The translations under genes were made by a program, and so were the position numbers. Below the pieces are notes generated by a model. The model had not been told where the DNA came from. It saw nothing but the letters and a program-made list of their open reading frames with translations, and searched no databases. Shown one piece after another: positions 12,865-36,224 of a DNA stretch of 38,219 nucleotides; position 1 is the first letter of the stretch; each line of letters begins with the position of its first letter. Origin of the DNA: Silicimonas sp. (lineage in GTDB: Bacteria; Pseudomonadota; Alphaproteobacteria; Rhodobacterales; Rhodobacteraceae); assembly GCA_022820365.1 (NCBI GenBank), contig JAJEFO010000037.1:1-38219 (forward strand), in the 5' to 3' direction.

Positions 12865-12941
<77 letters not shown>

Positions 12942-22258: not shown

Positions 22259-23080
22259 CTATGAAACGACGTCCACATGTCCCGAAACCGTATAGACATC
22301 GCCATTCGTGTCCACCCATTCAAAGACCAGATTCGCACTCTCTGAGAGGCGCAGGCTGAATGCAATGTAGGGGTTCGCGGCTACAGCGGGCTCCAGCTTG
22401 ACTCCGAAGACCTCTGTCCCCTCGACAAGGCATCTAAATCGTTCGGCGATACGGACGGGAACAAGAAGGCCTGTCTTGTCGTGGCGCAATCCAGTTTCCA
22501 TCGGATGGTTGATGATGGTGCGCACCGTAAAAACCTCGTCTCTCGCCACACTGTCCGGCAGCGCCACTCGCATGTTCGGTGCCCAACCCGGCGGGAATTG
22601 GTCGTTTGCGATGCTGTCCTCGCAGGCCCCGTATGTGACGTTGACGTGCCGAACGGCCGTGAAGGTTTCGCCGTCGGACATCTCGGCAATAGCCACAACG
22701 TCTTGAAATGCGTCAAGCCGCACGCGGGTGCTCATCCGTGCCTCGCCACAGGCTGGCGTAAAGTAGAGAGCGACAACCCGGGGACGCGGATTGCGAGGCG
22801 CGTAGACGCGGACGACACGCGGGTAGTCGTCCGGAGTCATTTGGCAGGGGACGTACGTATCGATCGGTACGGAGGCACCGGAGTCGGAGAATTCCGGCAT
22901 GGTGATTTCGATCTTGCCCGATTTCAGTGCCGCCGCGCCGAAATCTTCTTCAATCGCGGCAAGCATCTCCGCCTCGTCCGCCTGCAGCGGCAACGCACAG
23001 GTTGCCAGACCAGCCGCCAGCAGCGCGCGGCGTGACAAACTGATCGGCAGTGCGACCGGCGGCCCATTCGGGTCTGACAT
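22259..23080 (-). CDS. SoxYZ fusion sulfur-carrier protein
   Basis: A 273-residue exported protein joining both halves of the SoxYZ thiosulfate-oxidation carrier. The N terminus has a Tat-type signal (LSRRALLAAGLATCALPLQA). Residues about 40-155 match SoxY, ending in HVNVTYGACED, where Cys153 stands where SoxY has its C-terminal GGCGG carrier cysteine. Residues about 165-273 match SoxZ (MRVALPDSVARDEVFTVRTI ... VSGHVDVV). Thus the carrier cysteine is internal, not on a free swinging tail. GGAGGGC lies 7 bases before the ATG at 23080. It is divergent from the cytochrome/SoxAX genes and would carry sulfur groups in the periplasm; fused SoxYZ-like proteins are also known beside quinoprotein dehydrogenases. 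Confidence 0.88.
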   Translation of the reverse strand: MSDPNGPPVALPISLSRRALLAAGLATCALPLQADEAEMLAAIEEDFGAAALKSGKIEITMPEFSDSGASVPIDTYVPCQMTPDDYPRVVRVYAPRNPRPRVVALYFTPACGEARMSTRVRLDAFQDVVAIAEMSDGETFTAVRHVNVTYGACEDSIANDQFPPGWAPNMRVALPDSVARDEVFTVRTIINHPMETGLRHDKTGLLVPVRIAERFRCLVEGTEVFGVKLEPAVAANPYIAFSLRLSESANLVFEWVDTNGDVYTVSGHVDVVS

Positions 23081-23550
23081 GTCCGAAGCCCTCCATGCCC
23101 GTGTCGCCAACAGGTGCGCGCGCAGCCTAGCATTTCCACGCCAACAAAAAAACCTCTGAACAAGCGAAATCTCGCATGGCAGTTCCGCAGCACGGCACAG
23201 TCACAGATCATCGGCATCTTGCGGGAAGAGGCGGCTGTTGCGCGGATGGCCGCGATCCTGCCGCAGCTGCGGTTTGACAGCCGGACCCCCCAGCGCCGCG
23301 GCATCTGCAAGAAGTTCTCGTTGCTCAACACGCCCGGACGTCCCAGGTCTTCCGGTTTCACGACAGCACCGGGCATTCAGTCCGCGGGCGTTTCCGACGT
23401 TGCGCTTCCGCTGCCTGAGGCGCCGGTGGCGAACAACCGGCCCCGTCTCGTCGAAGCGGGACCTGTCAGTTAAAGTGGCTTTTCCTATGTCTTAGATAGG
23501 CTACACTAATGACATTCCCTGCCATCCTCGGCGCAAGCTGTGGAGGGGCC
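23081..23550. other. Divergent intergenic region with a possible IS3 remnant
   Basis: This 470-base gap separates SoxYZ from the oppositely oriented cytochrome genes. In the plus frame around 23200-23235 the translation QSQIIGILREEAAV resembles the start of IS3-family OrfA transposases, but nothing further of such an element follows. The rest shows no recognisable gene. Promoters for both directions should lie here. Confidence 0.35.
23484..23500. promoter_or_regulatory. Inverted repeat upstream of the sulfide dehydrogenase/sox genes
   Basis: CCTAT-N7-ATAGG, about 90 bases before the first cytochrome gene and in a short AT-richer stretch, is a candidate regulator site or part of the promoter. 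The arms are only five bases, so chance is possible. Confidence 0.3.
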
Positions 23551-23586
23551 ATGATTTGCCTGAAGAGGGACCATGACTTGTCCTGA
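23551..23586 (+). CDS. Possible 11-residue leader ORF
   Basis: ATG at 23551 follows TGGAGGGGCC, a stronger Shine-Dalgarno sequence than that of the next gene, and encodes MICLKRDHDLS before TGA. It overlaps the start of the cytochrome gene at 23573 by 14 bases in another frame. It may couple translation into the cytochrome gene or be accidental. Confidence 0.3.
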   Translation: MICLKRDHDLS

Positions 23587-23905
23587 TCCGGATCGTGTCC
23601 ACCATGGAGTCTTCGCGATCATTGCGTCAGTTCTTGCAAGTGCCGGGATTGCCTGGGCGGCAGACGGGCCGCGTTCGGTGACGGTCGAAGCCTGCACAAC
23701 GTGCCATGGCCCTGGCGGCATTAGCCACGGGACGATGCCCACCATCGCCGGCATGGACAGCGAGACCTTGGCCGAAGTCCTGCTTGCTTTCAGGGATGGC
23801 TCGCTCGAATCAACGGTCATGGGCCGCCTCGTTGGGCCTTTGTCCGACGAGGACATTGCCGGAATCGCGGCCTATTTTGCCGCCCTGCCGGGAGCCGACC
23901 AATGA
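23573..23905 (+). CDS. c-type cytochrome subunit, sulfide dehydrogenase-associated
   Basis: A 110-residue exported monoheme cytochrome c. A signal peptide (about residues 10-30, VFAIIASVLASAGIAWAADG) is followed by the heme site ACTTCHGPGG. Candidate axial methionines are in GTMPTIAGM. Its length and its four-base overlap (ATGA) with the flavoprotein gene identify it as the cytochrome partner of a flavocytochrome c sulfide dehydrogenase (FccA/SoxE type). Electrons from the flavin would pass through its heme to other periplasmic cytochromes. Confidence 0.85.
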   Translation: MTCPDPDRVHHGVFAIIASVLASAGIAWAADGPRSVTVEACTTCHGPGGISHGTMPTIAGMDSETLAEVLLAFRDGSLESTVMGRLVGPLSDEDIAGIAAYFAALPGADQ

Positions 23906-25188
23906 CCAGAACCGGGCTGACCCGCCGCCAAGCGCTTGGCCTTGCCGGCGCGGCGCTTACCGCGCCGATCCTCGCAACGCCGGCGCGGGCACAGGCCGGT
24001 GCGCATGTCGTCGTCGTCGGCGGCGGATTCGGCGGGACGGCGGCGGCGCGAGCCATGCGCCGGATCATGCCGGAGGTGGCAGTTACACTTGTCACTGATG
24101 CACCGACCTTCACCACCTGTCCGTTTTCCAACCTCGTGATTGGCGGGCTGCGGGACATGTCCGAGATCCGGTTTTCCTACGATGCCCTGCACAACGATGG
24201 CGTTACAGTGCGGCTCGATCCGGCGGTCGCACTCGATCCTGCCGGCCGCACCGTAACACTGCAGTCTGGCGACAAGCTGTCTTACGACCGGGCCATCATC
24301 TCGCCCGGGGTCGACTTCCGGTACGAAGCGCTCCCCGGGGTCGGGCCCGAGGTCGCGGAAAGGCTGCCTCATGCCTGGAAGGCCGGCGCGCAAACGATCC
24401 TGTTGCGTGACCAGATCCGGTCGATGCCTCATGGCGGGACCGTCATCATCGCCCCGCCAGACAACCCGTTCCGTTGCCCTCCAGGGCCTTACGAGCGTGC
24501 GAGCTTGATCGCAAGTTACCTGAGCCGGCACAATCCGACCGCCAAGATCGTCATCGTCGACGGCAAGGACAAGTTCTCCAAACAGGGCCTGTTCATGGAA
24601 GGCTGGCAGGCGCTCTATTCGGGAATGATTGACTTCGTTCCGTTTTCCGAACACGGGGGACTGAAGGGCATCGACGCCGATGCGCGCCGCATTGAGACCT
24701 TTTTTGGCGATTTCAAGGGTGATGTGATCAACCTGATCCCGCCTCAGCAGGCGGCCGCAATCGCACTGGATGCCGGGCTGGGCGGCAGCGGCTTATGGTG
24801 CGAGATCGACGGATTGACATTCGAGGCAAGAGAGGCCGCACATGTCCACGTCATCGGCGACGCCGCAATCGTCGGCGACATGCCCAAGAGCGGATTCGCG
24901 GCCGCAACTCAGGGCAAGGCATGCGCCCACGCGGTGGCAGCACTCTTGGCGGGGCGCGAGCCTCAGCGCGGAATTCTGATGAACACCTGCTACAGCTTTG
25001 TCGGGCCCGAGTACGGAATCTCGGTTGCCGGCGTATACCGAAGTGCGCCGGACACCAACCGGCTGGCCAGCCTGCCCGGCGCCGGCGGCACCAGCCCCGC
25101 GGGAGATTTGCCGGAGCTGCGCCGCGACGAAGCGAACTACGCCCGTGGCTGGTACGCGAACCTGACGCAGGAACTGTTCGGAGCGTGA
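23902..25188 (+). CDS. fccB: Flavocytochrome c sulfide dehydrogenase flavoprotein (FccB/SoxF-like)
   Basis: A 428-residue FAD enzyme with a Tat signal (TRRQALGLAGAALTAPILA), so it is exported folded. The FAD-binding motif is VVVGGGFGGTAAAR (37-50). The two cysteines forming the redox-active disulfide near the flavin in this family are present as Cys73 (FTTCPFSN) and Cys363 (NTCYSFVGPEYG). The family oxidises sulfide to sulfur or polysulfide and passes electrons to the cytochrome subunit encoded just before. It overlaps soxX downstream as GTGA. Confidence 0.92.
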   Translation: MTRTGLTRRQALGLAGAALTAPILATPARAQAGAHVVVVGGGFGGTAAARAMRRIMPEVAVTLVTDAPTFTTCPFSNLVIGGLRDMSEIRFSYDALHNDGVTVRLDPAVALDPAGRTVTLQSGDKLSYDRAIISPGVDFRYEALPGVGPEVAERLPHAWKAGAQTILLRDQIRSMPHGGTVIIAPPDNPFRCPPGPYERASLIASYLSRHNPTAKIVIVDGKDKFSKQGLFMEGWQALYSGMIDFVPFSEHGGLKGIDADARRIETFFGDFKGDVINLIPPQQAAAIALDAGLGGSGLWCEIDGLTFEAREAAHVHVIGDAAIVGDMPKSGFAAATQGKACAHAVAALLAGREPQRGILMNTCYSFVGPEYGISVAGVYRSAPDTNRLASLPGAGGTSPAGDLPELRRDEANYARGWYANLTQELFGA

Positions 25189-25610
25189 GGCGGGTGCCTG
25201 CTTTAGCCCTGGGCATCTGGCTGCAGGGCTTCGGGACGGCCAACGCAGACGGGCTGGCCCCGCTGACCGGTCAGCCCGGCGACCCGTCGCGCGGCGAAGC
25301 GCTTCTGCTCGACATGCAGCGCGTCAGTTGCCTGATCTGCCATCGAATCTCCTCCCTCGACGAAAGGGACCAGGGCCAAATTGGCCCGGCCCTCGACGGC
25401 GTTGCGTCCCGGCTTGACAACATGGAGTTGCGGCAACGAATCGTCGACGCCCGTGTCTTCAACCCCGACACGATCATGCCGCCCTACTACTCGGTCACAG
25501 GATTGGTCGATGTCGCGGACCTCTATCGCGGACGGACCATCTACGATGCACAGGAGGTCGAAGACGTCGTCGCTTACCTGCTTACCCTGACGGAAGAGGC
25601 AAACCGGTGA
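25185..25610 (+). CDS. soxX: SoxX-like c-type cytochrome
   Basis: A 141-residue exported monoheme cytochrome beginning at a GTG that overlaps the flavoprotein stop. A hydrophobic signal (VPALALGIWLQGFGTANA) precedes the heme motif CLICH (Cys49-His53). Then come QGQIGPALDGVASRL and the likely axial Met98 in TIMPPYYSV, as in SoxX. SoxX pairs with SoxA to join thiosulfate to the carrier cysteine of SoxYZ. It is coupled to soxA by a GTGA overlap. Confidence 0.88.
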   Translation: MRRVPALALGIWLQGFGTANADGLAPLTGQPGDPSRGEALLLDMQRVSCLICHRISSLDERDQGQIGPALDGVASRLDNMELRQRIVDARVFNPDTIMPPYYSVTGLVDVADLYRGRTIYDAQEVEDVVAYLLTLTEEANR

Positions 25611-26365
25611 GGCGGCGTTGCTTGTCGGCGCTGCTGGCGCTAGCCTTCTGCCAGACTGTTGTGGCCGAGGAGCCGCGGTCCGGCTACACTTACATGGAGC
25701 CGGCAACGCAGGCGATGCAGGACGACGATTTCCTGAATCCTGGGTTCTTTCTGGTCGATGAAGGACTTCGGCTATGGCGCCAGCCAATGGGACCTGCCGG
25801 CCAATCCTGTGCCGACTGCCACGGCCCGGTCGAACGGGAAATGAATGGCGTCGCCGCACGATACCCTGTGCTGGACGCGGGAACGGGCAAGCTGGTCAAT
25901 CTGGAGCGGAAGATCCAGTTAGAAACCGCCCGCATGGGCGCGGAGCCACTGGCCTACGAAAGCCCCGAAATCCTGTCACTGACAACCTTGATTTCATACC
26001 AGTCGCGGAACATGCCCATGCAGCCCGAGATCACGCCGCAGTTGCAGCCGTTCCTCGACCGTGGCAGGAAAATTTACGAACAACGGCGGGGGCAACTGAA
26101 CCTGTCGTGCCCGCAATGCCACGTCGATCATGCCGGCGACAAGCTTCGGGGCGATGTGATCAGCCAAGGACAGGTCAATGCCTTTCCCATCTATCGCTTG
26201 CTTTGGGGAGAGCCAGGATCGCGTCACCGAATGTTCGAATGGTGCATGCAATCGATACGCGCGCGGCCATTTGAACGCGGGTCGGACGAGTTCATCGAAC
26301 TTGAACTCTATCTGGTTCAGCGCGGCGCCGGTCTGGTGATTGAAGCGCCCGGCGTGCGGCGATGA
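25607..26365 (+). CDS. soxA: SoxA-like diheme cytochrome
   Basis: A 252-residue exported protein, GTG start overlapping soxX. It has a signal peptide (LSALLALAFCQTVVAEE) and two heme motifs, CADCH (68-72) and CPQCH (168-172). The SoxA signature SQGQVNAFPIYRLLW is followed by FEWCMQSIRARPF, where Cys213 matches the active-site cysteine that ligates heme and carries a persulfide in SoxA. SoxAX forms the S-S bond between thiosulfate and SoxYZ. All catalytic features are visible, so it is probably active even though soxB is not in the window. Confidence 0.92.
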   Translation: MRRRCLSALLALAFCQTVVAEEPRSGYTYMEPATQAMQDDDFLNPGFFLVDEGLRLWRQPMGPAGQSCADCHGPVEREMNGVAARYPVLDAGTGKLVNLERKIQLETARMGAEPLAYESPEILSLTTLISYQSRNMPMQPEITPQLQPFLDRGRKIYEQRRGQLNLSCPQCHVDHAGDKLRGDVISQGQVNAFPIYRLLWGEPGSRHRMFEWCMQSIRARPFERGSDEFIELELYLVQRGAGLVIEAPGVRR

Positions 26366-26404
26366 GCGGCAACTGGGAGTGGCCCGAGGGAGAGGCAAGA
26401 ACAT

Positions 26405-27700
26405 ATGGGACGTGGAATGAAGGTGCTGAGTTCGCTGGTTGTGGCGTTCCTTCTCTTGGTCGGCGCGGCGCTCTTCTGGGTCGCCTATGCCCCGGCACTT
26501 GACCCTTTGGAGCCGGGCAGCCTGGAATTCTCCGACGACGAGGTCGAACGCGGCGAGTTACTGGCACTGGTCGGCGCCTGTTCTGCCTGCCATACGGCCG
26601 AGGGTGGCGCTCCGTTGGCGGGAGGGCTTGGACTTCCGACGCCCTTCGGCACGATCTATTCGACCAACATCACCCCCGATCCTGAAACCGGCATTGGTCG
26701 ATGGAGCCTCGCCGCCTTTGCCCGGGCGATGCGGGAAGGGCTGGACCGCGAAGGCAGGCATCTTTACCCGGCCTTCCCCTACGACAGTTTCACCAAGTCG
26801 ACGGACGAGGACCTGCGCGCGATCTATGCCTGGCTTATGAGCCAGCCTCCGGTCATTGCCGAGAGGACGCCGAACGAGCTGCCGTTCCCGTTTTCCTTCC
26901 GGCCAGTTCTCGCTGGGTGGAAGCTGCTGTTTCTGGATGGAACGCCCTACGTACCTGACCCGGCACTTGACGAGGATCTGAGCCGCGGCGCCTACCTTGC
27001 GATGTCGCTCGGCCACTGCGGGGCCTGCCACACGCCGCGCAACCGCTTCGGCGCAATGATTGGCGACCGCCTGTTCGAAGGGGGCGAGGCAGAGGGCTGG
27101 CTGGCACCGCCGCTTGGCGACCATTCCATCGCCCCGGTTGCCTGGACGCTGAACGACTATGCCGATTACCTGTTCGACGGCTGGAGTGAGGAGCATGGCA
27201 TTGCGGCCGGACCGATGGCCACGGTGGCCGATCAACTCTACGACGCAGACGAAGACGATGTATTCGCAATTGCGGCCTGGCTTGAGTCCATCACCCCTGA
27301 GCAATCGGACGAGGACAGGAACGCCGCCCTGAGGTTCGCCGAGGCACGCGACTGGCCGCCGACCGAAGGAGTGCACTATGATGAGAAGATCACCGATCCG
27401 GTCCTGAGCGCCGGGCGCGACGTCTTCGCGGCTAGGTGCGCGAAGTGCCACAAGGAAAGGATCGCGAAATCGCAGGCCATTTCGTTGGGCCTGACCTATG
27501 CGATCAATGCGCCTTCACCGAAAAACCTGTTCAATGTCGTGCGTGACGGCATCGCGCCGCCGCTCGGAGTGCCGGACCGCAAGATGGAGGCGATCGCGCT
27601 GACAGATGAGGAACTGTCAAATGTCGCGGCCTATGTGCGCTGGCATTTCACCGACCTGCCACCTTGGAGTCATCTCGAGAGAGCGGCGGCCTCGCATTGA
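26405..27700 (+). CDS. Triheme cytochrome c subunit of a membrane-bound dehydrogenase
   Basis: A 431-residue protein with an N-terminal membrane anchor or signal (VLSSLVVAFLLLVGAALFWV) and three heme motifs: CSACH (59-63), CGACH (205-209) and CAKCH (345-349). This is the layout of the cytochrome subunit of alcohol/aldehyde dehydrogenases and of IorAB-type molybdenum hydroxylases, which passes electrons to quinone or an oxidase. It lies 39 bases after soxA in the same direction, and an IorAB pair follows 2 kb downstream. The ATG at 26405 and one four codons later are both possible. Confidence 0.88.
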   Translation: MGRGMKVLSSLVVAFLLLVGAALFWVAYAPALDPLEPGSLEFSDDEVERGELLALVGACSACHTAEGGAPLAGGLGLPTPFGTIYSTNITPDPETGIGRWSLAAFARAMREGLDREGRHLYPAFPYDSFTKSTDEDLRAIYAWLMSQPPVIAERTPNELPFPFSFRPVLAGWKLLFLDGTPYVPDPALDEDLSRGAYLAMSLGHCGACHTPRNRFGAMIGDRLFEGGEAEGWLAPPLGDHSIAPVAWTLNDYADYLFDGWSEEHGIAAGPMATVADQLYDADEDDVFAIAAWLESITPEQSDEDRNAALRFAEARDWPPTEGVHYDEKITDPVLSAGRDVFAARCAKCHKERIAKSQAISLGLTYAINAPSPKNLFNVVRDGIAPPLGVPDRKMEAIALTDEELSNVAAYVRWHFTDLPPWSHLERAAASH

Positions 27701-27705
27701 GCCGC

Positions 27706-27737
27706 AGCGTCAGTCGCAGGGAGCGTCAGTCGCAGGG
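27706..27737. repeat. 16-bp tandem duplication
   Basis: AGCGTCAGTCGCAGGG occurs twice with no spacer, in the gap between the convergent cytochrome and Rap1a-like genes. The second copy holds the stop codon and last codons of the minus-strand gene, so a slip here would duplicate or move that gene's end without changing most of it. Confidence 0.85.
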
Positions 27738-28103
27738 AAAGTGCCTGATGAACATTTCGACCGCAGTTTCGAAGGCGGGCAGATCGTCGATATATCCGGT
27801 ACTGACCACCACGTCGGGACCGGCGAAGACCGCGACCAGATCCTGAAGGGTTACGGTCGCCGGTATGCAGGCCTTATTTCGGATCACTACGAAATCCGCA
27901 TAGCCCTGCACAAGCCCGTTGCAGAAGTCCTGCGATCGCCGTTCGCGTAGAAGGCAGAGTGCGACCGCTTCGCCGGTACGCAGAAACGGCTCTGCCACAA
28001 TCGGCCTGCGTCCTTGGACAACAGGGGAGTCCGAGCTCTCTGCGCCAAATGTCACATGCGGCCAGATCAGCGCCAGGAACAACGCAAGGTTCACTCTTGG
28101 CAT
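27726..28103 (-). CDS. Small secreted Rap1a/Tai-like protein
   Basis: A 125-residue protein with a signal peptide (VNLALFLALIWPHVTFGAES) and four cysteines after it (in ALCLL, DFCNG, KACIP and HFPCD), the pattern of small disulfide-bonded proteins of the Rap1a/Tai family. Within the family some members are immunity proteins against type VI secretion amidases, but many are orphan periplasmic proteins. No effector or secretion gene is nearby, so an immunity role is not supported. It is transcribed against the redox genes. Confidence 0.65.
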   Translation of the reverse strand: MPRVNLALFLALIWPHVTFGAESSDSPVVQGRRPIVAEPFLRTGEAVALCLLRERRSQDFCNGLVQGYADFVVIRNKACIPATVTLQDLVAVFAGPDVVVSTGYIDDLPAFETAVEMFIRHFPCD

Positions 28104-28307
28104 GTCGCTTCGGCCCCTTTCCTATGGGCAGGTGAACACGATCGCAGCCGTCTCGCAAGGCTCTGGCAGTCAATCTTCCGCGGCTGCCGCCGGATCTCAT
28201 GCAAAATGCAAATCAAGATGAGTCTCCTGGATACGGTTCATCCAAATTGGTTTTGCAATTGGTTCGACTTGACTATATTGGTACAGTTGCATCAGGGAAT
28301 GAGGCAA

Positions 28308-28622
28308 ATGGAAGTCTCGCACCACGCCAAGATTGTCGCCTGGTTCGGCATGGTTCTGCTTGGGTCGGTGCACGCCGCAATGGCCGAGAAGATCGAGGCC
28401 AATTGCACCGGCATGATAGATTTCGACATCTATACGATCGACACCGAGGAACCCATTCAGGATATTGCGCTCATCGGAACATCCAATGTGGCAATCGACG
28501 ACGAGTTCATCATTCTGACCGGGGAATTCGGCGAGTACAAATTCGACCTTAACCGCGGGACGCTCTATCGAGATGGCAGCGATACCGGCATCTATTGCAC
28601 ATATTCCCGCAAGCCCGGGTAG
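28308..28622 (+). CDS. Small secreted hypothetical protein
   Basis: From the ATG at 28308 the frame encodes 104 residues. A signal peptide (IVAWFGMVLLGSVHAAMA) is followed by an acidic mature part with two cysteines (EANCTGMIDFD and IYCTYSRKPG) that could form a disulfide. An ATG nine bases earlier is also possible; the one chosen has GAGG before it. I do not recognise the family. It stands alone between the Rap1a-like gene and the molybdenum hydroxylase genes. Confidence 0.6.
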   Translation: MEVSHHAKIVAWFGMVLLGSVHAAMAEKIEANCTGMIDFDIYTIDTEEPIQDIALIGTSNVAIDDEFIILTGEFGEYKFDLNRGTLYRDGSDTGIYCTYSRKPG

Positions 28623-29515
28623 ACCGCGGGTTCCGCACGGGCGCCAGCCGCCGCGCAGTCAATCCATCACACTTGACACCGGCTCTTCTTCTTTCGGTTT
28701 GCTGCTGTCGCGTTCCTGCATGGCTTGGATGGCGATGAAGGCATGGGGCAGGAACCCGATGCCCTGCAACTGACTGGAAAGCCCTGATCTGGCGCAGCGG
28801 ACCGGTCGCACCGGTCCCGACACGCGGGTGATTTCCAACTGCGACCGAGAGAGTGAAATCCGGGAGATGATTGAGGCCGAGGCGCGGGAACCGCGGGCTG
28901 CACATTGGCATTGAGTTTGACTAGGACAGAAATTCCTGCATTCCGCGACCTTCCAAGGTTCATGTCCTGGAGCGTTTCCGTGCTCGCGCTGAAATTGCTC
29001 GCTCGGGCTCATCTCACGGACCGAGCCGGTACATCATGCCATCGGTGCGGCCCGTCCTGCGGAGGGCAGCGACGGTTCCTCGGCTCAGGCACCTCGACAT
29101 TGGTGATACGGCGCAAGGGCTGGGCTGGGCTGACGCCGATCCGAAACCAGTCGGCGGAACGGGATGAGTGGGGCGAGAGTACGTGAACCCGCAATTCTGC
29201 ACTGCACACGGTGTTCTGCCAGACCTCCATGGTGATGCTGAACGGCACGAGGCAGATGAACTGGCCAAGCCCGGGGCGCTCCGCCTGACTGCGAAGCGGG
29301 GCAGGAAGCGCGCCACGACAGCGCTGACCCCGCGCATGGCCGTGGTTTTTCTCCGGACGTGGCTCGACAGTACGAAATTCCGGTTCAGCCGGGATCAGGT
29401 GCCGCCGCCTGATCCGGCATGAGCATGGCTGCGTCATGTCGAACCGACTCCGGCCACGGAGTCGAACGTGCGCCAAAGATAGGCCGCCACGGCAGTCTCC
29501 TTCAGGCGGACAGGT
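28623..29515. other. Gene-poor region
   Basis: About 900 bases without a gene I can support. Two minus-strand stretches read partly like protein: the end of a frame at 28659-29012 (FIAIQAMQERDSSKPKEEEP, then VSSVMD) and the middle of one at 29009-29530 (ITMEVWQNTVCSAELRVHVL). Neither has a credible start or a known family. They may be remnants of decayed genes. Confidence 0.4.
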
Positions 29516-29532: not shown

Positions 29533-29559
29533 TGACGTATTCGAAAAAACGGCTTCCCT

Positions 29560-29587: not shown

Positions 29588-29686
29588 TACACTTCGACTA
29601 GAGCCCCTTGGGCCCGATTTGGACGTGTTCTCTTTTCGTGAAGACTAGAGAATCTTCGTCGGGTTCGGGAAGTCTCAATACGCTTG

Positions 29687-29718: not shown

Positions 29719-29738
29719 CAATCCTAGGGAGGAAATTT

Positions 29739-30200
29739 ATGTCGATAACGCTCAATATCAACGGTCAGGATCACTCGATCGACGTGGATCCACAAATGCC
29801 CCTGCTTTGGGCAATCCGCGAAACGGTCGGCCTGACAGGCACGAAGTTCGGCTGCGGGATCGCCCAGTGCGGCAATTGCACCGTGATCGTCGACGGCAAC
29901 GCCGTGCGGTCCTGCAACACGCCCGTCGCAGCCGCTGCGGGAAAGACGATTCGCACCATCGAAGGCGTCTCGGAGAACAATGACCATCCGGTTCAGCAGG
30001 CATGGCAGGAACTTTCGGCCCCGCAATGCGGGTATTGCCAGTCCGGCCAGATCATGTCGGCGGTCGCCCTGCTGGAGAAAAGTCCCGATCCCACGGACAA
30101 CGAGATCGACAAAGCCATGGCCGGGAACATCTGCCGGTGCGGCACCTACCCGCGAATTCGCGCAGCCATTCATCGCGCTGCCGAACTGAGCAAGACCTGA
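29739..30200 (+). CDS. [2Fe-2S] subunit of a molybdenum hydroxylase (IorA-like)
   Basis: A 153-residue iron-sulfur subunit of the xanthine oxidase family. It has the ferredoxin-type cluster ligands Cys39, Cys44, Cys47 and Cys59 ([11 protein letters not shown] ... SC) and the helical-domain cluster ligands Cys97, Cys100, Cys132 and Cys134 ([10 protein letters not shown] ... [11 protein letters not shown]). It passes electrons from the molybdenum centre of the next gene's product to a cytochrome. It has no signal peptide, so it probably leaves the cell bound to the Tat-exported large subunit. A strong AGGGAGG lies before the ATG. Confidence 0.93.
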
Positions 30201-30211
30201 GGGAGAAAGTC

Positions 30212-32407
30212 ATGAAACATATGAATCTCACCAGACGGCGCTTCATGAAGATCACGACCTCGGCCGCGGGCGGTCTGATGGTTGGAATTCATTTCCCGTC
30301 GATAGCCAGGGCCAGCGGTGAAGGTGCCGCGGCGGAAATAAACGCCTGGCTGACCATCGACCCCGACAACATCGTCAGCATCGTGACGCCCCAGACTGAA
30401 ATGGGCCAGGGTGCCTTCACGGCGGTTCCCATGATGGTGGCAGAGGAACTTGACATACCGTGGGAAAACGTCCGGCATGTCTATGCAAGTGCTAACCGCC
30501 ATGTGAACAATGACAATCTCTACACGACGACGTCCACTGGCGGGTCCACAACAGTTTCGCGCCGTCACCCGTACATGATGCAGGCCGGTGCCTCGGCCCG
30601 CGAGCGTCTCCGGGTGGCCGCAGCGAATCGCTGGCAAGTGCCGGTGGACAAGGTGACCGCGAAGCAAGGCTGGCTCACGACCGAGCACGCGGAGCAGGGC
30701 ACGATTCAGGGCACTTACGGCGAATTCGCGGCCGAAGCCGCAGCCGTAACGCTCGATGAAGAGCCGACGATCAAGGCCTACGGCGACTGGTGGCTTCTTG
30801 GCAGGGACATCCCGCGTTTGGACGTGCCGCTCAAGACCAACGGGACCGCAACCTACCCAATCGACGTGGTCGTTCCCGGCATGGTCCATGCCGCAGCGAT
30901 GGCTTGTCCTGTGCCCGAAGGTCGGCTGGTGAGCTACGATTTCGACGCGGTCAAGGACATGCCTGGCGTCATTGCGGCGGTTGAGCTCGAGCAGGTCAAG
31001 GAAGTGCCGGCCTTCACCGACCTGCGCAGCGGCGTCGCGATCGTGGCCGACAGCTGGTATCAGGCACAGAACGCCTTGGCGGTCATGCCCATTGTATGGG
31101 ACTATGGCCGGGGCGCTTCAATCAGCACCGAAAGCCAGATGGCCGAGGCGATGCAGCTGATATCGCAACCTGGGGCACTTGTACTCAACGAGGACGGCAA
31201 TGTCGGCCGCAGGTTGGACCGTGGCGTGAATCACGATGCGGCGCACGGGATCATTGAGGCTTCTGCCAATCAGGTAATCGGCGAAGTCTACTACCGGCCG
31301 TTCGAAACTCACGCGACAATGATGCCGCCCTGTGCCGTAGCTGACGTGAAGGACGACAGGGTCGACGTCTGGACCTTTACCCAAGACATCGCTCGTTCGC
31401 TGAACGAGGTTGCCGACCAACTTGGGCGCGACACCGAGAACGTGTTTCTGAACCAGACCTATCTGGGCGGCGGCTTCGGTGGCGGCTACAACATGGATGT
31501 GCACCGGCAAGCAGCCGCCATTTCGGCGGCGGTTGGACTACCGGTCAAGGTAATCCGTTCGCGCGAGGAAGACGTCGCGCAGGACAGCCAGCGCCCACCT
31601 GTCTGGGGGACCTACAAGGCCGCGCTTGGCGAGGATGGTCTTCCCGAAGCTCTCGTAACCCATTTCGTGGGCGACGAGAAGTTTCCCGCCTTCTCGCAGC
31701 GCGGTGTGGCCAACATGCCCTACCTGGTGCCGAGCCGCCGCCACGAATACAGCGCGGTCCAGAACCATATCCCGATCGGCTATCACAGGGCACCGGGCGC
31801 CAACTCCACCGGGTTCATAGTCGAGCAAATGGTCGATGAGTTGGCCCAAGCCGGCGGCTGGGACCCGCTGGATTGGCGGATCAAGATGACCGAGGGCAAC
31901 GAGCCGTGGCAGCGCGTATTGCTGGCGATGAAGGAAAAGTCCGGCTGGACGACCGATTTGGGTCGGGGTGAAGGCATGGGAATTGGGGTGGTCGAATCGC
32001 ACGGCACCGTTGCCGGTTGCGTCGCCACCGTGGCGATTAGCCGCCGCGGCCAGATCTTCATCGACAAGTTGGACTTCTACCTCAACAGCGGCTACGTCAT
32101 CAATCCGCTAGGCGCGCGCGAACAAGCCGAAAGCTCGGCGATCTGGGAACTGTCCCACGCCATGTTCGGTGGCCTCGTCATCCGCGACGGTCGGATCGTG
32201 AACACGAACTTCGACAGCTACCAGGTGATGAAGATGCCGGATACGCCTCCCGAGATCGAGGTGCACATGGAGATGTCGGAGGATCAGTGGTGGGGTGGCC
32301 TGGGGGAGCCGACCGGTCCACCGACCCCGCCCGCGGTTGCCAACGCGATCTACTACGCAACCGGCAAGCGGATCCGCTCCACGCCGCTGGCGAAGGCGGA
32401 ATTGTGA
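30212..32407 (+). CDS. Molybdopterin-binding large subunit of a molybdenum hydroxylase (IorB-like)
   Basis: A 731-residue catalytic subunit with a Tat signal (NLTRRRFMKITTSAAGGLMV). It has the molybdopterin-binding segments QTEMGQGAFTAVPMM, STGGSTTVSRR and YLGGGFGGGYNMD, then GYHRAPGANSTGF. The active-site glutamate is Glu699 in GGLGEPTGPPTPP. The family hydroxylates N-heterocycles or oxidises aldehydes, with periplasmic location and cytochrome c as acceptor. The ATG at 30212 after GAGGGAGAAA begins the signal peptide, 11 bases after iorA. Substrate cannot be told from sequence. The triheme cytochrome at 26405 is the likely electron acceptor. No XdhC-type chaperone gene is present in the window. 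Confidence 0.92.
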   Translation: MKHMNLTRRRFMKITTSAAGGLMVGIHFPSIARASGEGAAAEINAWLTIDPDNIVSIVTPQTEMGQGAFTAVPMMVAEELDIPWENVRHVYASANRHVNNDNLYTTTSTGGSTTVSRRHPYMMQAGASARERLRVAAANRWQVPVDKVTAKQGWLTTEHAEQGTIQGTYGEFAAEAAAVTLDEEPTIKAYGDWWLLGRDIPRLDVPLKTNGTATYPIDVVVPGMVHAAAMACPVPEGRLVSYDFDAVKDMPGVIAAVELEQVKEVPAFTDLRSGVAIVADSWYQAQNALAVMPIVWDYGRGASISTESQMAEAMQLISQPGALVLNEDGNVGRRLDRGVNHDAAHGIIEASANQVIGEVYYRPFETHATMMPPCAVADVKDDRVDVWTFTQDIARSLNEVADQLGRDTENVFLNQTYLGGGFGGGYNMDVHRQAAAISAAVGLPVKVIRSREEDVAQDSQRPPVWGTYKAALGEDGLPEALVTHFVGDEKFPAFSQRGVANMPYLVPSRRHEYSAVQNHIPIGYHRAPGANSTGFIVEQMVDELAQAGGWDPLDWRIKMTEGNEPWQRVLLAMKEKSGWTTDLGRGEGMGIGVVESHGTVAGCVATVAISRRGQIFIDKLDFYLNSGYVINPLGAREQAESSAIWELSHAMFGGLVIRDGRIVNTNFDSYQVMKMPDTPPEIEVHMEMSEDQWWGGLGEPTGPPTPPAVANAIYYATGKRIRSTPLAKAEL

Positions 32408-32465
32408 CGAATTGCGGGGCTCGATGGGCTCCGGGAACGCCCGTCCTCCCTCTAGGGCGAAAATC

Positions 32466-32490
32466 GGAAGGAGCCGCTGCGGCTCCTTCC
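32466..32490 (+). terminator. Hairpin after the iorB-like gene
   Basis: GGAAGGAGCCG-CTG-CGGCTCCTTCC is a perfect 11-bp stem with a three-base loop, 58 bases after the large-subunit stop. The T-run of a classical terminator is missing (CTTAG follows), so it may act as a weak terminator or protect the 3' end of the message. Confidence 0.6.
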
Positions 32491-32585
32491 CTTAGTATCG
32501 GCGCATGCTTTCAAGATGCCGTCATGGCCGGATCCGTCGTCGGTGACCATGAGCCATCTCTTGCATGTTTGAGTGACCGCCTCCC

Positions 32586-33140
32586 TTGAAGGCAGTTCCG
32601 GCAGCGGCGTTTCTTGCAATTTTGCCAATCCTGGCTTGGGCGTGGGATCCGGACGATCTAAACCGGTTTCGCAGCACGCTGACCTGCCTGTCCTGTGACT
32701 TGACCGGCGCGAACCTCGCAAAGGCCGATCTTCGGGCGTCGAACCTTGGCGGAAGTGATCTGACAGATGCCCGGCTATCCTACAGCATTCTGATCGGCGG
32801 AAATCTGTCGGGGGTGACATTGACTGGGGCCGACCTTCGGGGGGCAAACCTCTTCTACAGCCTGCTGGATGGTGCCAGGCTGGACGACGCCGACCTGACC
32901 GGAGCCATATTGACCGGAGCGACGCTGACCGGCGCCGATCTGACCGGGTCGGACCTGGGCGGTGCGAACCTCTTTTCGGCCAACCTCGCGGGTGCAATCA
33001 TGCACCGGACCGACCTTAGGCACGCCTCGCTTGCGCGCGCCAATCTGGGCGGCACCAAAATGGAACATACCGCTCTCGACAACGCGATCTTGTGCAAAAC
33101 CCTGATGCCGGACGGACGCAGTGCAGACAGGGACTGCTAG
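32586..33140 (+). CDS. Exported pentapeptide-repeat protein
   Basis: A 184-residue protein with a signal peptide (VPAAAFLAILPILAWAW) followed by some 20 five-residue repeats of the A(D/N)LxG type, for example TGADLRGANL, DDADLTGAIL and TGADLTGSDL. These should form a right-handed quadrilateral beta helix. One cysteine pair (TCLSCDLTG) precedes the repeats. An in-frame TGA 15 bases upstream and the lack of a nearby ATG force a TTG start at 32586; no strong Shine-Dalgarno is visible. It overlaps the NosR-like gene by 20 bases, so the two are likely cotranslated. The role is unknown. Confidence 0.8.
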   Translation: MKAVPAAAFLAILPILAWAWDPDDLNRFRSTLTCLSCDLTGANLAKADLRASNLGGSDLTDARLSYSILIGGNLSGVTLTGADLRGANLFYSLLDGARLDDADLTGAILTGATLTGADLTGSDLGGANLFSANLAGAIMHRTDLRHASLARANLGGTKMEHTALDNAILCKTLMPDGRSADRDC

Positions 33141-35265
33141 GAATTGGCTGCCGCGCACCTGGCGGCTGCCGGGGTTGTTGGCGCTCGCGCTTGGGGCCTG
33201 GCTAGTCGGCCTGACGCCGATATGGGCACAAAGCGACGCACGCGAGACGCCATCGCTGCTTGATCGACTGACTCCTGAAGTGATGTCCGCGGTCTTTCCC
33301 GGAATCACCCGGCTGGAAATGGTGAAGGACGACGGGCCTGTTGCCGCCGCCGCCTTTCGCAGGGAGGAGATGGCGGGATATGTCTTTTCCACTCTCGATG
33401 TGCTGCGTGCTCCGGGCTATTCGAGCACGCCATTCGACGTCGTAGCGGGTGTCACGATGGACGGCCGGATTACGGGTGCGGTGGTCCTATTCCACCGCGA
33501 ACCCTACCTGATCAACGACGCCCGCCGTTCCGCGCTTCTCGTCACTTTTTTGCAAGCCATCGAGGGCAGCGAGGCGCGGCTCGGAGCGGAAAGCGGACTG
33601 CCGCCGGACTTCGTGGCCGGAGCGACCATATCCGCACGCGCCATGCGAAACGCGGTGCAGGAAGGCGCTCGCATGGTGCAGCGCTATCGCACCGAAGAGA
33701 TCGTGATCACCGAGCCGACCATCGACATGATCAACTTCAAGCCAATGAGCCAAGAGCAGCTTGTCGCTGACGGTGGACTGGCCTTTGCGCATGTAACGAA
33801 CGCAAAGCTGGCCGAGGTGATGGCGCGCGCCGGGGTTGGCGACCTGCTGCCAGAGGTGCCCATGTCAGGCGGACCGGACGACACCTACATCGACTTCGTG
33901 ACCGGCTACGCCAATCCGCCAAAGGTCGGGCGCAACGGCGCCGGGCTGGAACCCTTTGACGAACTGACAAATGGCTGGCCCTCGGGCACCCAAGGCATCT
34001 TCGTTGCCACGCTGGGCGGCGTCTACGACCACCGCGGAACGCGGTACAACAACCTGTCAAACGGTTTCCTGCTGGATAGAGTGAAGGTCACGCAGGGCCA
34101 GCACGACTTCAGATTCACCAAGGCGGACATAATCGTGACGCGTGGCAAGATCGCAGACATCCTGCTGCTGCCACCAAATAGCGGCTTCGATCCGATGCAG
34201 CCGTGGCGCGCTGACCTCTTCGCGACCGCGGTGAGACCTGACGGGAAACTGGAACGGTTCGTGCTGGCCGGCCTCGACTACACTCTGCCCGACTCCATGA
34301 TCCTCATGCCGGAACCGGACCCGCCCCCGGTCTGGGTCGAACCTTGGGCGGAGAGCAGGTACGACATCGCAATCCTCGCCACGGCTCTGGCGCTGCTGAC
34401 CGCGCTCCTGGCGTTTCAGGCGCAGCTGGCCCGGCAGCGCCGGTTGCATCGATGGCTCAGGATCTCGTTCCTGGTGTTCACGCTGGTCTGGATCGGCTGG
34501 ATCGCCAGTGCGCAGCTCTCCATCGTTCACCTGATAAACTATCTCAGGGCACCCTTTGTGAACCTTGACCTTGCTTTCTATCTGGCCGAGCCGCTGATCG
34601 TGATCCTTACGGGATACACCGCGATCTCGCTTGTCCTGCTGGGACGCGGCGTCTTTTGCGGCTGGCTGTGCCCGTTCGGGGCCCTGCAGGAACTGCTGGC
34701 ACAGGCAGCCCGGACCCTGAACCTGCCGCAGTGGACGCCCTCCATGCCCACGCAACGCGTCCTATGGAACGGCAAGTACGTTGCGCTTGGGGTGATTCTG
34801 CTGCTCACCGTCGTGGCCCCGGATGCCGCGACCGTCGCCGAAGAAGTCGAACCCTTCAAGACCGCGATCACGGCCGTATTCGTGCGCGGTCTGCCCTTTG
34901 TCGCCTATGCCGTCGTGCTTCTGGTGATCGGGCTCTTTGTAGAACGTGCCTTTTGCCGTTTCCTCTGCCCGCTCGGGGCGGGGCTTGCACTCCTCGACCG
35001 GCTGCACCTGTTCGAGCTTATCAAGCGTCGCCCGGAATGTGGCAATCCATGTCAGCTGTGCGAACGTTCCTGTCCCGTGAAGGCCATCGAGCCGTCCGGT
35101 GAGGTCGTCACGGCTGAGTGTTTCCAGTGTCTCGACTGCATGGTCGAGTACTACGATGACCGACGGTGCCCGCCCCTAGCGAAGTTGCGAAAGGAACAGG
35201 AACAGGCTGCAGGGCTTCGCCCCGTCCTCAATTCGGCAGGCGCATTTTTGCGGACCCCGGCGTGA
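33121..35265 (+). CDS. NosR-like FMN-binding and 4Fe-4S membrane protein
   Basis: A 714-residue membrane protein with NosR layout. It has an N-terminal signal or anchor (LLALALGAWLVGLTPIWA), then a periplasmic FMN-binding domain with DFVAGATIS (163-171), where Ser171 or Thr169 could be flavinylated. About five transmembrane helices follow, carrying CGWLCPFGA and CRFLCPLGA. The C-terminal cytoplasmic part has two cluster motifs (CGNPCQLCERSCPVKA and CFQCLDCM ... RRCPP). NosR supplies electrons to nitrous oxide reductase, but no nos genes are here, so I infer electron transfer to another periplasmic enzyme, perhaps the neighbours. A GTG start overlaps the pentapeptide gene, and ApbE overlaps its end. 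Confidence 0.9.
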   Translation: MQTGTARNWLPRTWRLPGLLALALGAWLVGLTPIWAQSDARETPSLLDRLTPEVMSAVFPGITRLEMVKDDGPVAAAAFRREEMAGYVFSTLDVLRAPGYSSTPFDVVAGVTMDGRITGAVVLFHREPYLINDARRSALLVTFLQAIEGSEARLGAESGLPPDFVAGATISARAMRNAVQEGARMVQRYRTEEIVITEPTIDMINFKPMSQEQLVADGGLAFAHVTNAKLAEVMARAGVGDLLPEVPMSGGPDDTYIDFVTGYANPPKVGRNGAGLEPFDELTNGWPSGTQGIFVATLGGVYDHRGTRYNNLSNGFLLDRVKVTQGQHDFRFTKADIIVTRGKIADILLLPPNSGFDPMQPWRADLFATAVRPDGKLERFVLAGLDYTLPDSMILMPEPDPPPVWVEPWAESRYDIAILATALALLTALLAFQAQLARQRRLHRWLRISFLVFTLVWIGWIASAQLSIVHLINYLRAPFVNLDLAFYLAEPLIVILTGYTAISLVLLGRGVFCGWLCPFGALQELLAQAARTLNLPQWTPSMPTQRVLWNGKYVALGVILLLTVVAPDAATVAEEVEPFKTAITAVFVRGLPFVAYAVVLLVIGLFVERAFCRFLCPLGAGLALLDRLHLFELIKRRPECGNPCQLCERSCPVKAIEPSGEVVTAECFQCLDCMVEYYDDRRCPPLAKLRKEQEQAAGLRPVLNSAGAFLRTPA

Positions 35266-36224
35266 CCCTTTCGCGGCGCCGGACCTTGCGTATACTCGCC
35301 GCCGGCTTGGCGGTGCCGCTGGGCGTTCTCGGGCTGCAGTCGACCCAAGGCCTTCCGCGGCCCGTGCGCTGGCAGGGAGAGGCGCTGGGTGCGCTGTCGG
35401 CCATGACGCTTTGGAGCGTCGACCCGGCACGCGCCAGCCGCGCCCTTCGACGCATGCAGTTCGAGATCGCGCGGCTGGAGGCCATCTTCAGCCTCTTTCG
35501 ACCGGACAGCGAATTGTCGCGTTTGAACCGGGAAGGACGGATCGAACGCCCTTCGAGAGACATGATCGAAGTTCTCGATCTGAGCCGCCGGATCGCCGAG
35601 GCAAGTCGGGGGATGTTCGACCCTACAATTCAGCCGCTCTGGGCCCTTCACGCCGGCAGCAGGGCACCTGATCCGAGATTGATCGAACGCGTATTGCCTC
35701 TCGTCGACTACACATGCCTGACCGCACGTCGCAGTGCCATTCAATTTGGGCGCCCAAACATGGCCGCAAGCCTGAACGGAATTGCGCAAGGGTATGTCAC
35801 CGACCGGATCACTGAATTGCTGGGCAATGAAGGTTTCGAAAGCGCGGTGGTCGAACTGGGAGAAACCCGTGTTCTCGGCCAGGCGCCGGATGACCAACCT
35901 TTTTCCATCGGGCTTGTGAATCCGAGTTTCCCCGGCCGCATTTCGGGCCAGGTGGCACTTGCCAACGCAGCGCTATCGGTTTCCGGCGGCTATGGTCAGG
36001 CACTGCCGGACGGCACCGGCAACCACCTATTCGACCCCCGCAGCGGTCTGAGCGCAGGGAGCTTGTCACAGGTTGCCGTGATCGCGCCGAAGTCGGCGCT
36101 GGCCGACGCACTGTCGACAGCAATTTGCGTCGCCGGTGAAGGGGCGGCGCTGGCAATCCTGTCCACCGTACCATCCGCTCGGGCGATCTTGACGCGACCG
36201 GACGGGACCAGCGTCGAGGTCTAG
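35262..36224 (+). CDS. apbE: FAD:protein FMN transferase ApbE
   Basis: A 320-residue exported flavin transferase that attaches FMN covalently to Thr/Ser of target proteins. It has a Tat-type signal (LSRRRTLRILAAGLAVPLG), the FAD-binding region FSLFRPDSELSRLN, NGIAQGYVTDRI, the GNHLFDPRSG motif and the late DALSTAICVAG with the metal aspartate. The GTG at 35262 overlaps the NosR-like stop as GTGA. Coupling to a gene whose product has a GAT-type flavin site strongly suggests that product is its substrate. The final stop overlaps the convergent gene's stop. Confidence 0.92.
   Translation: MTLSRRRTLRILAAGLAVPLGVLGLQSTQGLPRPVRWQGEALGALSAMTLWSVDPARASRALRRMQFEIARLEAIFSLFRPDSELSRLNREGRIERPSRDMIEVLDLSRRIAEASRGMFDPTIQPLWALHAGSRAPDPRLIERVLPLVDYTCLTARRSAIQFGRPNMAASLNGIAQGYVTDRITELLGNEGFESAVVELGETRVLGQAPDDQPFSIGLVNPSFPGRISGQVALANAALSVSGGYGQALPDGTGNHLFDPRSGLSAGSLSQVAVIAPKSALADALSTAICVAGEGAALAILSTVPSARAILTRPDGTSVEV

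What the first reader, a model, noticed from the sequence alone, without database searches (positions are those of the whole stretch)
22259..36224. Partial Sox system joined to a molybdenum hydroxylase, NosR-like protein and ApbE
Seen directly: SoxYZ fusion, cytochrome plus FccB-like flavoprotein, SoxX and SoxA with active-site cysteine, a triheme cytochrome, IorA/IorB-type hydroxylase, exported pentapeptide protein, NosR-like FMN/4Fe-4S protein and ApbE, almost all in one direction. The window lacks SoxB (sulfate release) and SoxCD (the sulfane dehydrogenase, also a molybdenum enzyme), and has no nitrous oxide reductase. Inference: this may be a distinct periplasmic pathway in which SoxAX loads a sulfur group onto SoxYZ and the hydroxylase or flavoprotein oxidises it or an organic sulfur compound, with NosR-like/ApbE electron supply or removal. 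The alternative is two unrelated clusters side by side.
Basis: partly seen in the sequence, partly recalled or inferred. Interest (0 to 1): 0.8.

Follow-up and report, generated by a model that had tools for sequence, protein, structure and literature searches.

The report
Sox carrier genes with molybdenum hydroxylase
A set of sulfur-carrier genes that lacks the usual sulfate-releasing enzyme is joined to a molybdenum hydroxylase and a flavin electron relay, and the same core gene set recurs in many other bacteria, which points to a little-studied kind of sulfur oxidation pathway.

Summary
In detail: all named genes are present, open and under purifying selection in the genus, and neither the window's genome nor 7 congeners has SoxB or SoxC over cut-off. 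In the loci I read, SoxY proteins ending in an (A/G/P/S)AC arm instead of GGCGG have an IorAB-type hydroxylase within 10 kb in 44 of 48 cases and SoxB in 0 of 48; those ending in GGCGG have SoxB in 28 of 31 and IorAB in 0 of 31. The window has the first kind of arm (VTYGACED) and SoxXA, FccAB and IorAB: the parts list of this SoxB-less module. It differs: SoxY and SoxZ are fused; a triheme cytochrome and a pentapeptide/NosR-like/ApbE unit are added; SoxA has Met where 76 of 76 other SoxA have an Arg tied to thiosulfate binding. Its proteins lie on long branches, so common descent with the module is unproven, and NosR/ApbE is seen only in this genus. One cluster of this kind is in print (Starkeya novella); its function is unknown. 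I think it oxidises a carrier-bound sulfur compound, perhaps an organic thiol, without SoxB.

The parts
22259..23110 (-). SoxYZ fusion carrier; arm VTYGACED with Cys163 in the linker between the SoxY and SoxZ domains
   Evidence: Pfam SoxY 3.8e-26 and SoxZ 8.3e-23; Cys163 invariant in 28 aligned rows; one open frame in the window and 5 congener loci; 162-178 predicted with pLDDT under 50
23573..23905 (+). FccA-like monoheme cytochrome c
   Evidence: Cytochrome_CBB3 5.5e-6; one CxxCH
23902..25188 (+). FccB / SoxF-like flavoprotein (FCSD) with both conserved Cys
   Evidence: FCSD_central 5.6e-44, FCSD-flav_bind 1.1e-24; CPPGPYER and NTCYS motifs
25185..25610 (+). SoxX, likely GTG start overlapping the fccB stop
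   Evidence: TIGR04485 73 bits, cut-off 61; start candidates
25607..26365 (+). SoxA, diheme, active-site Cys kept, Arg at Cys-4 replaced by Met209
   Evidence: TIGR04484 196 bits, cut-off 110
26405..27700 (+). triheme cytochrome c, 39 bp after soxA
   Evidence: three CxxCH; Cytochrom_C 2.6e-18
29739..30200 (+). IorA-type 2Fe-2S subunit
   Evidence: Fer2_2 1.3e-31
30209..32407 (+). IorB-type molybdopterin subunit, Tat-type start, WGGLGEP active-site motif
   Evidence: MoCoBD_1 1.5e-30; TRRRF; motif; best solved match 8gy3_C, aldehyde dehydrogenase large subunit, 177 bits
32586..33140 (+). pentapeptide-repeat protein, overlaps the NosR-like gene by 20 bp
   Evidence: Pentapeptide 5e-33; spacing
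33121..35265 (+). NosR-like FMN-binding, NapH-type 4Fe-4S membrane protein
   Evidence: NF046105 451 bits, under the cut-off of 1000; the 12 Cys and Thr169 that are conserved in 29 of 29 NosR/NirI-type hits are kept
35262..36224 (+). ApbE flavin transferase, 4 bp overlap with the NosR-like gene
   Evidence: Pfam ApbE 3.7e-54; spacing

Best explanation
The locus encodes a SoxB-independent, carrier-bound periplasmic oxidation pathway, the genus's divergent version of a module found across Alphaproteobacteria. SHOWN: gene set, intact motifs, conservation in the genus, no SoxB or SoxC over cut-off, and the tight link, elsewhere, of non-GGCGG SoxY with IorAB and against SoxB. INFERRED: SoxXA joins a sulfur substrate oxidatively to the carrier Cys163; the IorAB hydroxylase oxidises the bound group in place of the SoxCD/SoxB steps; the FCSD flavocytochrome takes off or oxidises the sulfane sulfur left on the Cys. 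MOST SPECULATIVE (about 0.3): the substrate is an organic thiol rather than thiosulfate, the hydroxylase attacking the carbon next to sulfur so that an aldehyde leaves and a carrier persulfide remains. Electrons pass to the triheme cytochrome and, in this genus only, perhaps through the ApbE-flavinylated NosR-like protein to or from the membrane pool.
For: 44 of 48 xAC-arm SoxY loci have IorB within 10 kb, on the SoxA strand in 44 of 44, and 0 of 48 have SoxB or SoxC; 31 GGCGG loci: IorB 0, SoxB 28, SoxC 15 (the SoxC query, labelled SoxD in my scripts, scores 588 of 420 bits for SoxC). 44 of the 48 were found by SoxY alone; 40 of those have IorB. In 22 of the 27 class genomes with such a locus no SoxB match at 1e-60 was found (some of these assemblies are 74-89% complete), so it is usually not a spare copy. 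Same order in congener loci L037, L039, L040, L041 (L038 ends after the triheme cytochrome); SoxA and NosR-like in the same 6 of 8 genomes. dN/dS 0.08-0.37 for the 11 cluster genes against L039-L041. Window IorB shares WGG[VLI]GEP with every sox-linked IorB whose C-terminus was read; 1 of 29 best-scoring Rhodobacterales IorBs has it. SoxA Met209: Arg in 76 of 76 others; by its spacing this is TsdA Arg119, reported invariant in TsdA and SoxA, whose change to Ala raised the thiosulfate Km of TsdA about 20-80 fold (PMC4423706, passages and section 19; TsdA itself was not aligned here).
Against: Window SoxA, FccB and IorB lie outside the main xAC clades on long branches. IorB: the sox-linked IorBs plus L161 and L121 form one side of a branch (100) that leaves the window out; it is their sister at support 64 only; its best score is to a sox-less IorAB (L161, 388 bits; sox-linked ones 295-366), Rhodobacterales IorBs reach 348, so scores do not set it apart; it differs at GGGFGGG (for GGGFGRR) and GYHRAPG (for GFWRGVN). 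The carrier misses the TIGR04487 cut-off (95.5 of 172 bits) and fits TIGR04557 better (107.5). A 2 kb gap with an opposite-strand gene splits the cluster. IorAB pairs also occur without sox (L161, L279). TsdA R119A kept appreciable activity. In S. novella SoxAX and SoxYZ of the related cluster were not detected and expression was very low (PMC3797975, passages), which fits another substrate but also no function. No substrate evidence at all.
Confidence: 0.55

Rival explanations
1. Inorganic version: IorAB replaces SoxCD as a sulfane dehydrogenase and an unknown hydrolase replaces SoxB, so the pathway still oxidises thiosulfate or sulfide to sulfate.
For: SoxX, SoxA, carrier and FCSD are all inorganic-sulfur proteins; SoxCD is also a Mo enzyme (established knowledge); a SorA-like sulfite dehydrogenase (235 of 600 bits) is in the genome.
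Against: IorAB belongs to the xanthine oxidase family, which typically works on C-H bonds (established knowledge); SoxA lost the conserved Arg in this genus. The operons were not searched for other hydrolases, so this point is open.
Confidence: 0.2
2. Two unrelated clusters side by side: a Sox/FCSD set and an aldehyde-oxidising IorAB-cytochrome set with a NosR-like relay.
For: 2 kb gap with a minus-strand gene; IorAB sets exist alone (L161, L279); window IorB not inside the sox-linked clade; NosR/ApbE/pentapeptide not beside the xAC loci read outside the genus.
Against: IorAB and SoxXYZA recur together in loci of 17 family codes; SoxA and the NosR-like protein are present or absent together in 8 of 8 genus genomes.
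Confidence: 0.15
3. Decaying remnant of canonical thiosulfate oxidation after loss of SoxB and SoxCD, the FCSD doing plain sulfide oxidation.
For: SoxB and SoxC absent; SoxA Arg lost; separate soxYZ-FCSD locus C72 without soxB.
Against: All 11 cluster genes under purifying selection; window SoxA does not fall among the GGCGG rows; active-site Cys, hemes and carrier Cys kept in the aligned genus copies.
Confidence: 0.08
4. Helper of alcohol or aldehyde oxidation, like the quinoprotein-associated SoxYZ-like carriers: the carrier thiol holds an aldehyde or other carbon group.
For: Best NCBIfam hit of the fusion is TIGR04557 (107.5 bits); SoxYZ fusions S2/S4 of lucinid symbionts lie beside PQQ-ADH, xoxF and fdh (PMC11237559, passages); best solved match of IorB is an aldehyde dehydrogenase; NapH-like flavoproteins also lie beside an ethanol oxidase (PMC8238504, passages).
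Against: Under the TIGR04557 cut-off of 140; no PQQ dehydrogenase domain among the window proteins scanned; SoxXA and FCSD would have no clear task.
Confidence: 0.12

Closest known systems
Second sox cluster of Starkeya novella (soxX2Y2Z2A2F2 + xanthine oxidase family Mo enzyme Snov_1975/1976; PMC3797975, passages)
   Same: SoxXA, SoxYZ, flavocytochrome and a xanthine-oxidase-family Mo enzyme, no SoxB or SoxCD in the cluster
   Different: Window has a fused carrier, triheme cytochrome, pentapeptide/NosR-like/ApbE and SoxA Met209, and no full sox cluster elsewhere; the S. novella genes were not fetched here
NCBIfam TIGR04487 SoxY-related AACIE arm protein
   Same: Arm Cys in an xAC motif instead of GGCGG; window SoxY half scores higher to it (95.5) than to true SoxY (78.3)
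   Different: Window is under the cut-off of 172 and fused to SoxZ
Canonical Sox thiosulfate oxidation (SoxXA, YZ, B, CD)
   Same: SoxX and SoxA over curated cut-offs; SoxY and SoxZ folds
   Different: No SoxB or SoxC over cut-off, no GGCGG arm, SoxA lacks the conserved Arg
TIGR04557 quinoprotein dehydrogenase-associated SoxYZ-like carrier; SoxYZ-S2/S4 fusions (PMC11237559, passages)
   Same: SoxY-SoxZ fusion with one arm Cys
   Different: Under cut-off; no PQQ dehydrogenase among the neighbours scanned
NosR/NirI and flavinylated NapH-like electron relays (PMC8238504, passages)
   Same: FMN_bind + Fer4_5 architecture, the 12 Cys and the FMN Thr, ApbE partner
   Different: At most 41% identity to listed hits in 389 other genomes of the order; under half the NosR cut-off; sits with an oxidase set

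Membership tests
Canonical Sox thiosulfate-oxidising system | SoxB thiosulfohydrolase in the genome | tested here: not met
   0 of 8 genus genomes over cut-off; positive control 118 of 196 genomes of the order
Canonical Sox thiosulfate-oxidising system | SoxC sulfane dehydrogenase (full pathway) | tested here: not met
   0 of 8 over cut-off, own best 188.6 of 420 bits; that protein is closest to SorA
Canonical Sox thiosulfate-oxidising system | SoxY C-terminal GGCGG swinging arm | tested here: not met
   VTYGACED, internal to a fusion, in the window and 5 congener loci
Canonical Sox thiosulfate-oxidising system | SoxXA over curated cut-offs | tested here: met
   73/61 and 196/110 bits
Canonical Sox thiosulfate-oxidising system | Conserved Arg four residues before the SoxA Cys | tested here: not met
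   Met in 6 of 6 genus copies; Arg in 76 of 76 others
SoxB-less xAC-arm Sox + IorAB module (S. novella second cluster type) | Non-GGCGG xAC carrier arm | tested here: met
   GAC arm
SoxB-less xAC-arm Sox + IorAB module (S. novella second cluster type) | TIGR04487 cut-off | tested here: not met
   95.5 of 172 bits; 11 of the 44 xAC loci found by SoxY are also under it, 10 of them beside IorB, but at 146-171 bits or so
SoxB-less xAC-arm Sox + IorAB module (S. novella second cluster type) | IorAB beside soxXA, no soxB | tested here: met
SoxB-less xAC-arm Sox + IorAB module (S. novella second cluster type) | Common descent of IorB, SoxA and FccB with the module | tested here: inconclusive
   Long stems next to or between clades
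TIGR04557 quinoprotein-associated SoxYZ-like carrier | Curated cut-off | tested here: not met
   107.5 of 140 bits
NosR | NF046105 cut-off | tested here: not met
   450.8 of 1000 bits
NosR | nosZ in the genome | not tested
   only NosD was searched, no match
Xanthine oxidase family, IorAB type | 2Fe-2S subunit + Tat-type Mo subunit with active-site Glu motif | tested here: met

The most novel reading that the evidence does not exclude
There is a second, widespread kind of Sox pathway that does not use SoxB: SoxXA couples an organic thiol to an xAC-arm carrier, a xanthine-oxidase-family hydroxylase oxidises the carbon next to the sulfur and so cuts the C-S bond, and flavocytochrome c clears the persulfide. 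In this genus it is the only SoxXA system found, its SoxA has given up thiosulfate binding, and it is wired to the membrane by a flavinylated NosR-like protein.
Probability: 0.25. Interest if true: 0.88.

Novelty: new variant of a known kind. Interest (0 to 1): 0.74.

Why it matters
sox genes are read as markers of thiosulfate oxidation. SoxX, SoxA, SoxY and SoxZ in genomes of 20 family codes, mostly Alphaproteobacteria, seem to mark another reaction, so genome-based sulfur budgets may misread them. A carrier-bound route joining a Mo hydroxylase to SoxXA would be a new way to handle sulfur compounds in the periplasm. The clean split GGCGG/SoxB versus xAC/IorAB makes it directly testable in cultured genera such as Methylobacterium, Neorhizobium, Roseomonas and Starkeya.

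Tried and rejected
I first read the hits in other genomes, and C72 in the own genome, as SoxYZ fusions; one search showed that L002-L030 are separate soxY and soxZ with a stop between them, next to soxX and soxA, and one search showed the same for C72 (without soxXA in the 19 kb read). The 558-aa SoxB-like hit of the own genome (C40) is a 5'-nucleotidase-type protein. The 450-aa SoxC-like hit (C76) is closest to SorA. A scan of viral contigs found nothing. An orthologous cluster outside the genus was sought with NosR (390 genomes), IorB (196), SoxYZ (196) and SoxA (a collection of 84,980 species, by peptide patterns) and not found; the highest identities among listed hits outside the genus were 41% (NosR, partial; 39% at greater length), 36%, 41% (over both SoxYZ domains; single SoxZ up to 44%) and 51%. 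The SoxA scan can miss relatives without any of six exact peptides, and the genome samples are partial.

The first IorB tree held wrong-frame rows and was replaced, which used 24 of the 41 xAC IorBs over 550 aa. Five close copies were left out of the FccB tree and ten from the tree; the SoxA tree held 24 of the 31 GGCGG loci. In the FccB tree the side of the window also holds 4 of 10 FccBs from GGCGG loci, and one xAC FccB (L212) falls on the SoxF side. Three GGCGG loci lack SoxB: L061 and L063 (loci end just after soxA) and L082, the window's own C72. Four xAC loci lack IorB: L169, L196 and L220 lie near contig ends, L210 does not. In L216 IorB is split over two frames. L229 could not be typed by its tail. 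Loci without a SoxY over 60 bits (for example L046, L051, L058, L059, L062) are in neither count. Fisher values of 6e-18 and 2e-18 do not correct for kinship. 'AACIE' and 'SoxY-related' have no paper in the held library; some searches were the other literature searches; bioRxiv and most subscription papers are not held.
Full report
WHAT IS THERE. The window lies on contig C121 of a 4.7 Mb, 135-contig genome, 98% complete. The nearest named genomes are MAGs labelled Silicimonas and Boseongicola. Between an alpha/beta hydrolase (21285-21938), with iscR and suf genes further left, and a minus-strand protein (36221-37669) lie: the SoxYZ fusion (minus), then on the plus strand fccA, fccB, soxX, soxA (4 bp overlaps, taking GTG 25185 as soxX start), a triheme cytochrome 39 bp on, a 2 kb gap, iorA and iorB (8 bp apart), and after 178 bp pentapeptide-nosR-apbE with overlaps of 20 and 4 bp. 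The gap holds a minus-strand protein with a weak Rap1a match and a small ORF.

IT IS A UNIT IN ITS GENUS. Four congener loci carry the whole order (L037, L039, L040, L041) and a fifth (L038) up to the end of its contig. SoxA and the NosR-like protein are found in the same 6 of 8 genomes and missing in the same two. The 11 cluster genes show dN/dS of 0.08 to 0.37 against L039-L041. The cluster looks younger than its flanks: against L038, dS is 0.02-0.14 for the six cluster genes reached but 0.32 and 0.54 for the flanking hydrolase and iscR genes; against L041 it is 0.19-0.36 versus 0.51 and 0.43. I read this as transfer of the cluster between lineages of the genus; codon usage could also play a part.

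NO SoxB, NO SoxC. None of 8 genus genomes has a SoxB or SoxC match over the curated cut-off. The same SoxB model finds 118 of 196 genomes of the order, the window's genome not among them. The genome has a second carrier locus, soxY(GGCGG)-soxZ-diheme cytochrome-FCSD, on C72, with no soxB in the 19 kb read.

THE SAME PARTS ELSEWHERE. Among the 23 SoxA relatives outside the genus, one, L057, had IorAB with its stop overlapping the soxX start, then soxY, soxZ, soxA and an XdhC-family gene (under its cut-offs), and no soxB in 20.7 kb. Its SoxY is over cut-off for TIGR04487, the 'AACIE arm' family (194 of 172 bits). tblastn on plasmids then gave Methylobacterium sp. NMS14P, Neorhizobium galegae and Roseomonas marmotae with IorA, IorB, a cytochrome, an FCSD flavoprotein, SoxX, SoxY, SoxZ and SoxA and no soxB in the stretches read.

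TEST. TIGR04487 is over cut-off in 20 of 385 genomes of the class and 14 of 398 of the phylum sample (one genome is shared). I read the 40 best-ranked places, 20 of them over cut-off, then the 17 best-ranked new ones. With the four loci above and the loci fetched earlier (chosen by SoxA or as canonical examples), SoxY tails of the form (A/G/P/S)AC-x occur in 48 loci: IorB within 10 kb in 44, SoxB in 0, SoxC in 0, SoxX and SoxA in 48, FccB in 31. GGCGG tails occur in 31: IorB 0, SoxB 28, SoxC 15, FccB 9. Among the 20 places ranked just below cut-off, 11 have GGCGG tails: SoxB 11 of 11, IorB 0 of 11. 44 of the 48 were found by SoxY alone, and 40 of these have IorB. At genome level a SoxB match was found in 5 of the 27 class genomes with an xAC locus; both GGCGG controls in that call were positive. 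So the module is usually the only Sox system found, though some of these assemblies are incomplete. Four of the loci belong to one genus outside the class (f216).

IS THE WINDOW A MEMBER? In favour: the parts list, the xAC arm, no SoxB; its SoxY half fits TIGR04487 better than true SoxY (95.5 against 78.3 bits), though the whole fusion fits TIGR04557 best (107.5 of 140); FccB falls on the side of 24 of 25 xAC FccBs (and of 4 of 10 from GGCGG loci), away from the group with the genome's own C72 copy (99); IorB carries WGGLGEP, shared with the sox-linked IorBs read and with 1 of 29 Rhodobacterales IorBs. Against: every protein is on a long stem. SoxA lies between the GGCGG side (99) and a clade of 47 of the 48 xAC rows (96; L216 falls outside it). 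The sox-linked IorBs with L161 and L121 form one side of a branch (100) without the window, which is their sister at support 64; scores do not separate sox-linked from other IorBs, and two active-site stretches differ. I call it a divergent relative or a parallel assembly of the same system; the data do not decide.

CLUES TO FUNCTION. The carrier Cys aligns with the SoxY arm Cys in all 28 rows. AlphaFold (mean pLDDT 74.5, the other four models 61-66; SoxY rows only as outside relatives) gives a SoxY and a SoxZ domain joined by a low-confidence stretch 162-178 that holds it; 203-207 and 215-217 in the SoxZ half are weak too. The 20 best PDB matches are SoxY or SoxZ chains. The arm is thus probably a tethered loop, not a free end. 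SoxA keeps hemes and Cys, but the residue four before the Cys is Met in 6 of 6 genus copies and Arg in 76 of 76 others; a near-invariant Cys (77 of 78) is deleted and the next Arg (73 of 78) is Glu. By spacing the Arg matches TsdA Arg119, which is reported invariant in TsdA and SoxA and in contact with thiosulfate; R119A raised the Km from 0.22 to 17 mM or 2.2 to 47 mM but kept appreciable activity (PMC4423706, passages and section 19 read). I infer that thiosulfate is probably not the natural substrate in this genus. Xanthine-oxidase-family enzymes typically hydroxylate carbon (established knowledge), hence the organic thiol hypothesis; it has no direct evidence. The NosR-like protein keeps the 12 Cys and the FMN Thr found in 29 of 29 NosR/NirI-type hits; flavinylated NapH-like proteins are reported next to both reductases and an ethanol oxidase (PMC8238504, passages), so a relay for an oxidase is plausible. 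No outside locus in the tally has ApbE, the pentapeptide gene or the triheme cytochrome over 25 bits, and one has a 30-bit NosR match.

PRIOR KNOWLEDGE. Kappler and colleagues described a second sox cluster in Starkeya novella with SoxX2Y2Z2A2F2, a xanthine-oxidase-family Mo enzyme and no SoxB or SoxCD; its SoxAX and SoxYZ were not detected and gene expression was very low under the conditions tested (PMC3797975, passages). NCBI has the arm family by name. I found no paper on the general pattern in the library. SoxYZ fusions next to alcohol and methanol dehydrogenases are known in lucinid symbionts (PMC11237559, passages). The kind is therefore known as an orphan; its breadth, its exclusion of SoxB and this fused, NosR-linked form are new as far as these searches show.

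Noticed in passing
L082:9440-12518 (G000:C72): Own genome carries a separate soxY(GGCGG)-soxZ-diheme cytochrome-FCSD locus with no soxXA or soxB in the 19 kb read; L225 in another genome (tail GGCGAG, soxYZ + FCSD) is alike.
   Followed up: partly
27726-28103 (-) and 28320-28622 (+): Small protein with a weak Rap1a match (21.6 bits, cut-off 27.7) and a small ORF in the gap of the cluster; both found in the congener loci, dN/dS of the first 0.20-0.54.
   Followed up: partly
20659-27700 against L038 and L041: Synonymous divergence of the cluster is well below that of the flanking iscR and hydrolase genes, suggesting recent spread of the cluster within the genus.
   Followed up: partly
L081:9962-11314 (G000:C76): SorA-like sulfite dehydrogenase (235 bits, cut-off 600) in the genome; similar SoxC-model hits in several congeners.
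   Followed up: no
L266, L268, L269, L272 (f216): IorAB-SoxXYZA module without FccB in one genus of about 2 Mb genomes outside the class.
   Followed up: no
L279:8311-11167: Rhodobacterales IorAB that falls in the sox-linked IorB clade but has no sox genes in the 18 kb read.
   Followed up: yes
L085:10530-11033: A second pentapeptide-type protein (63 bits) about 2.7 kb after apbE in one congener.
   Followed up: no
12865-12941: tRNA-Arg (ccg) on the minus strand.
   Followed up: no
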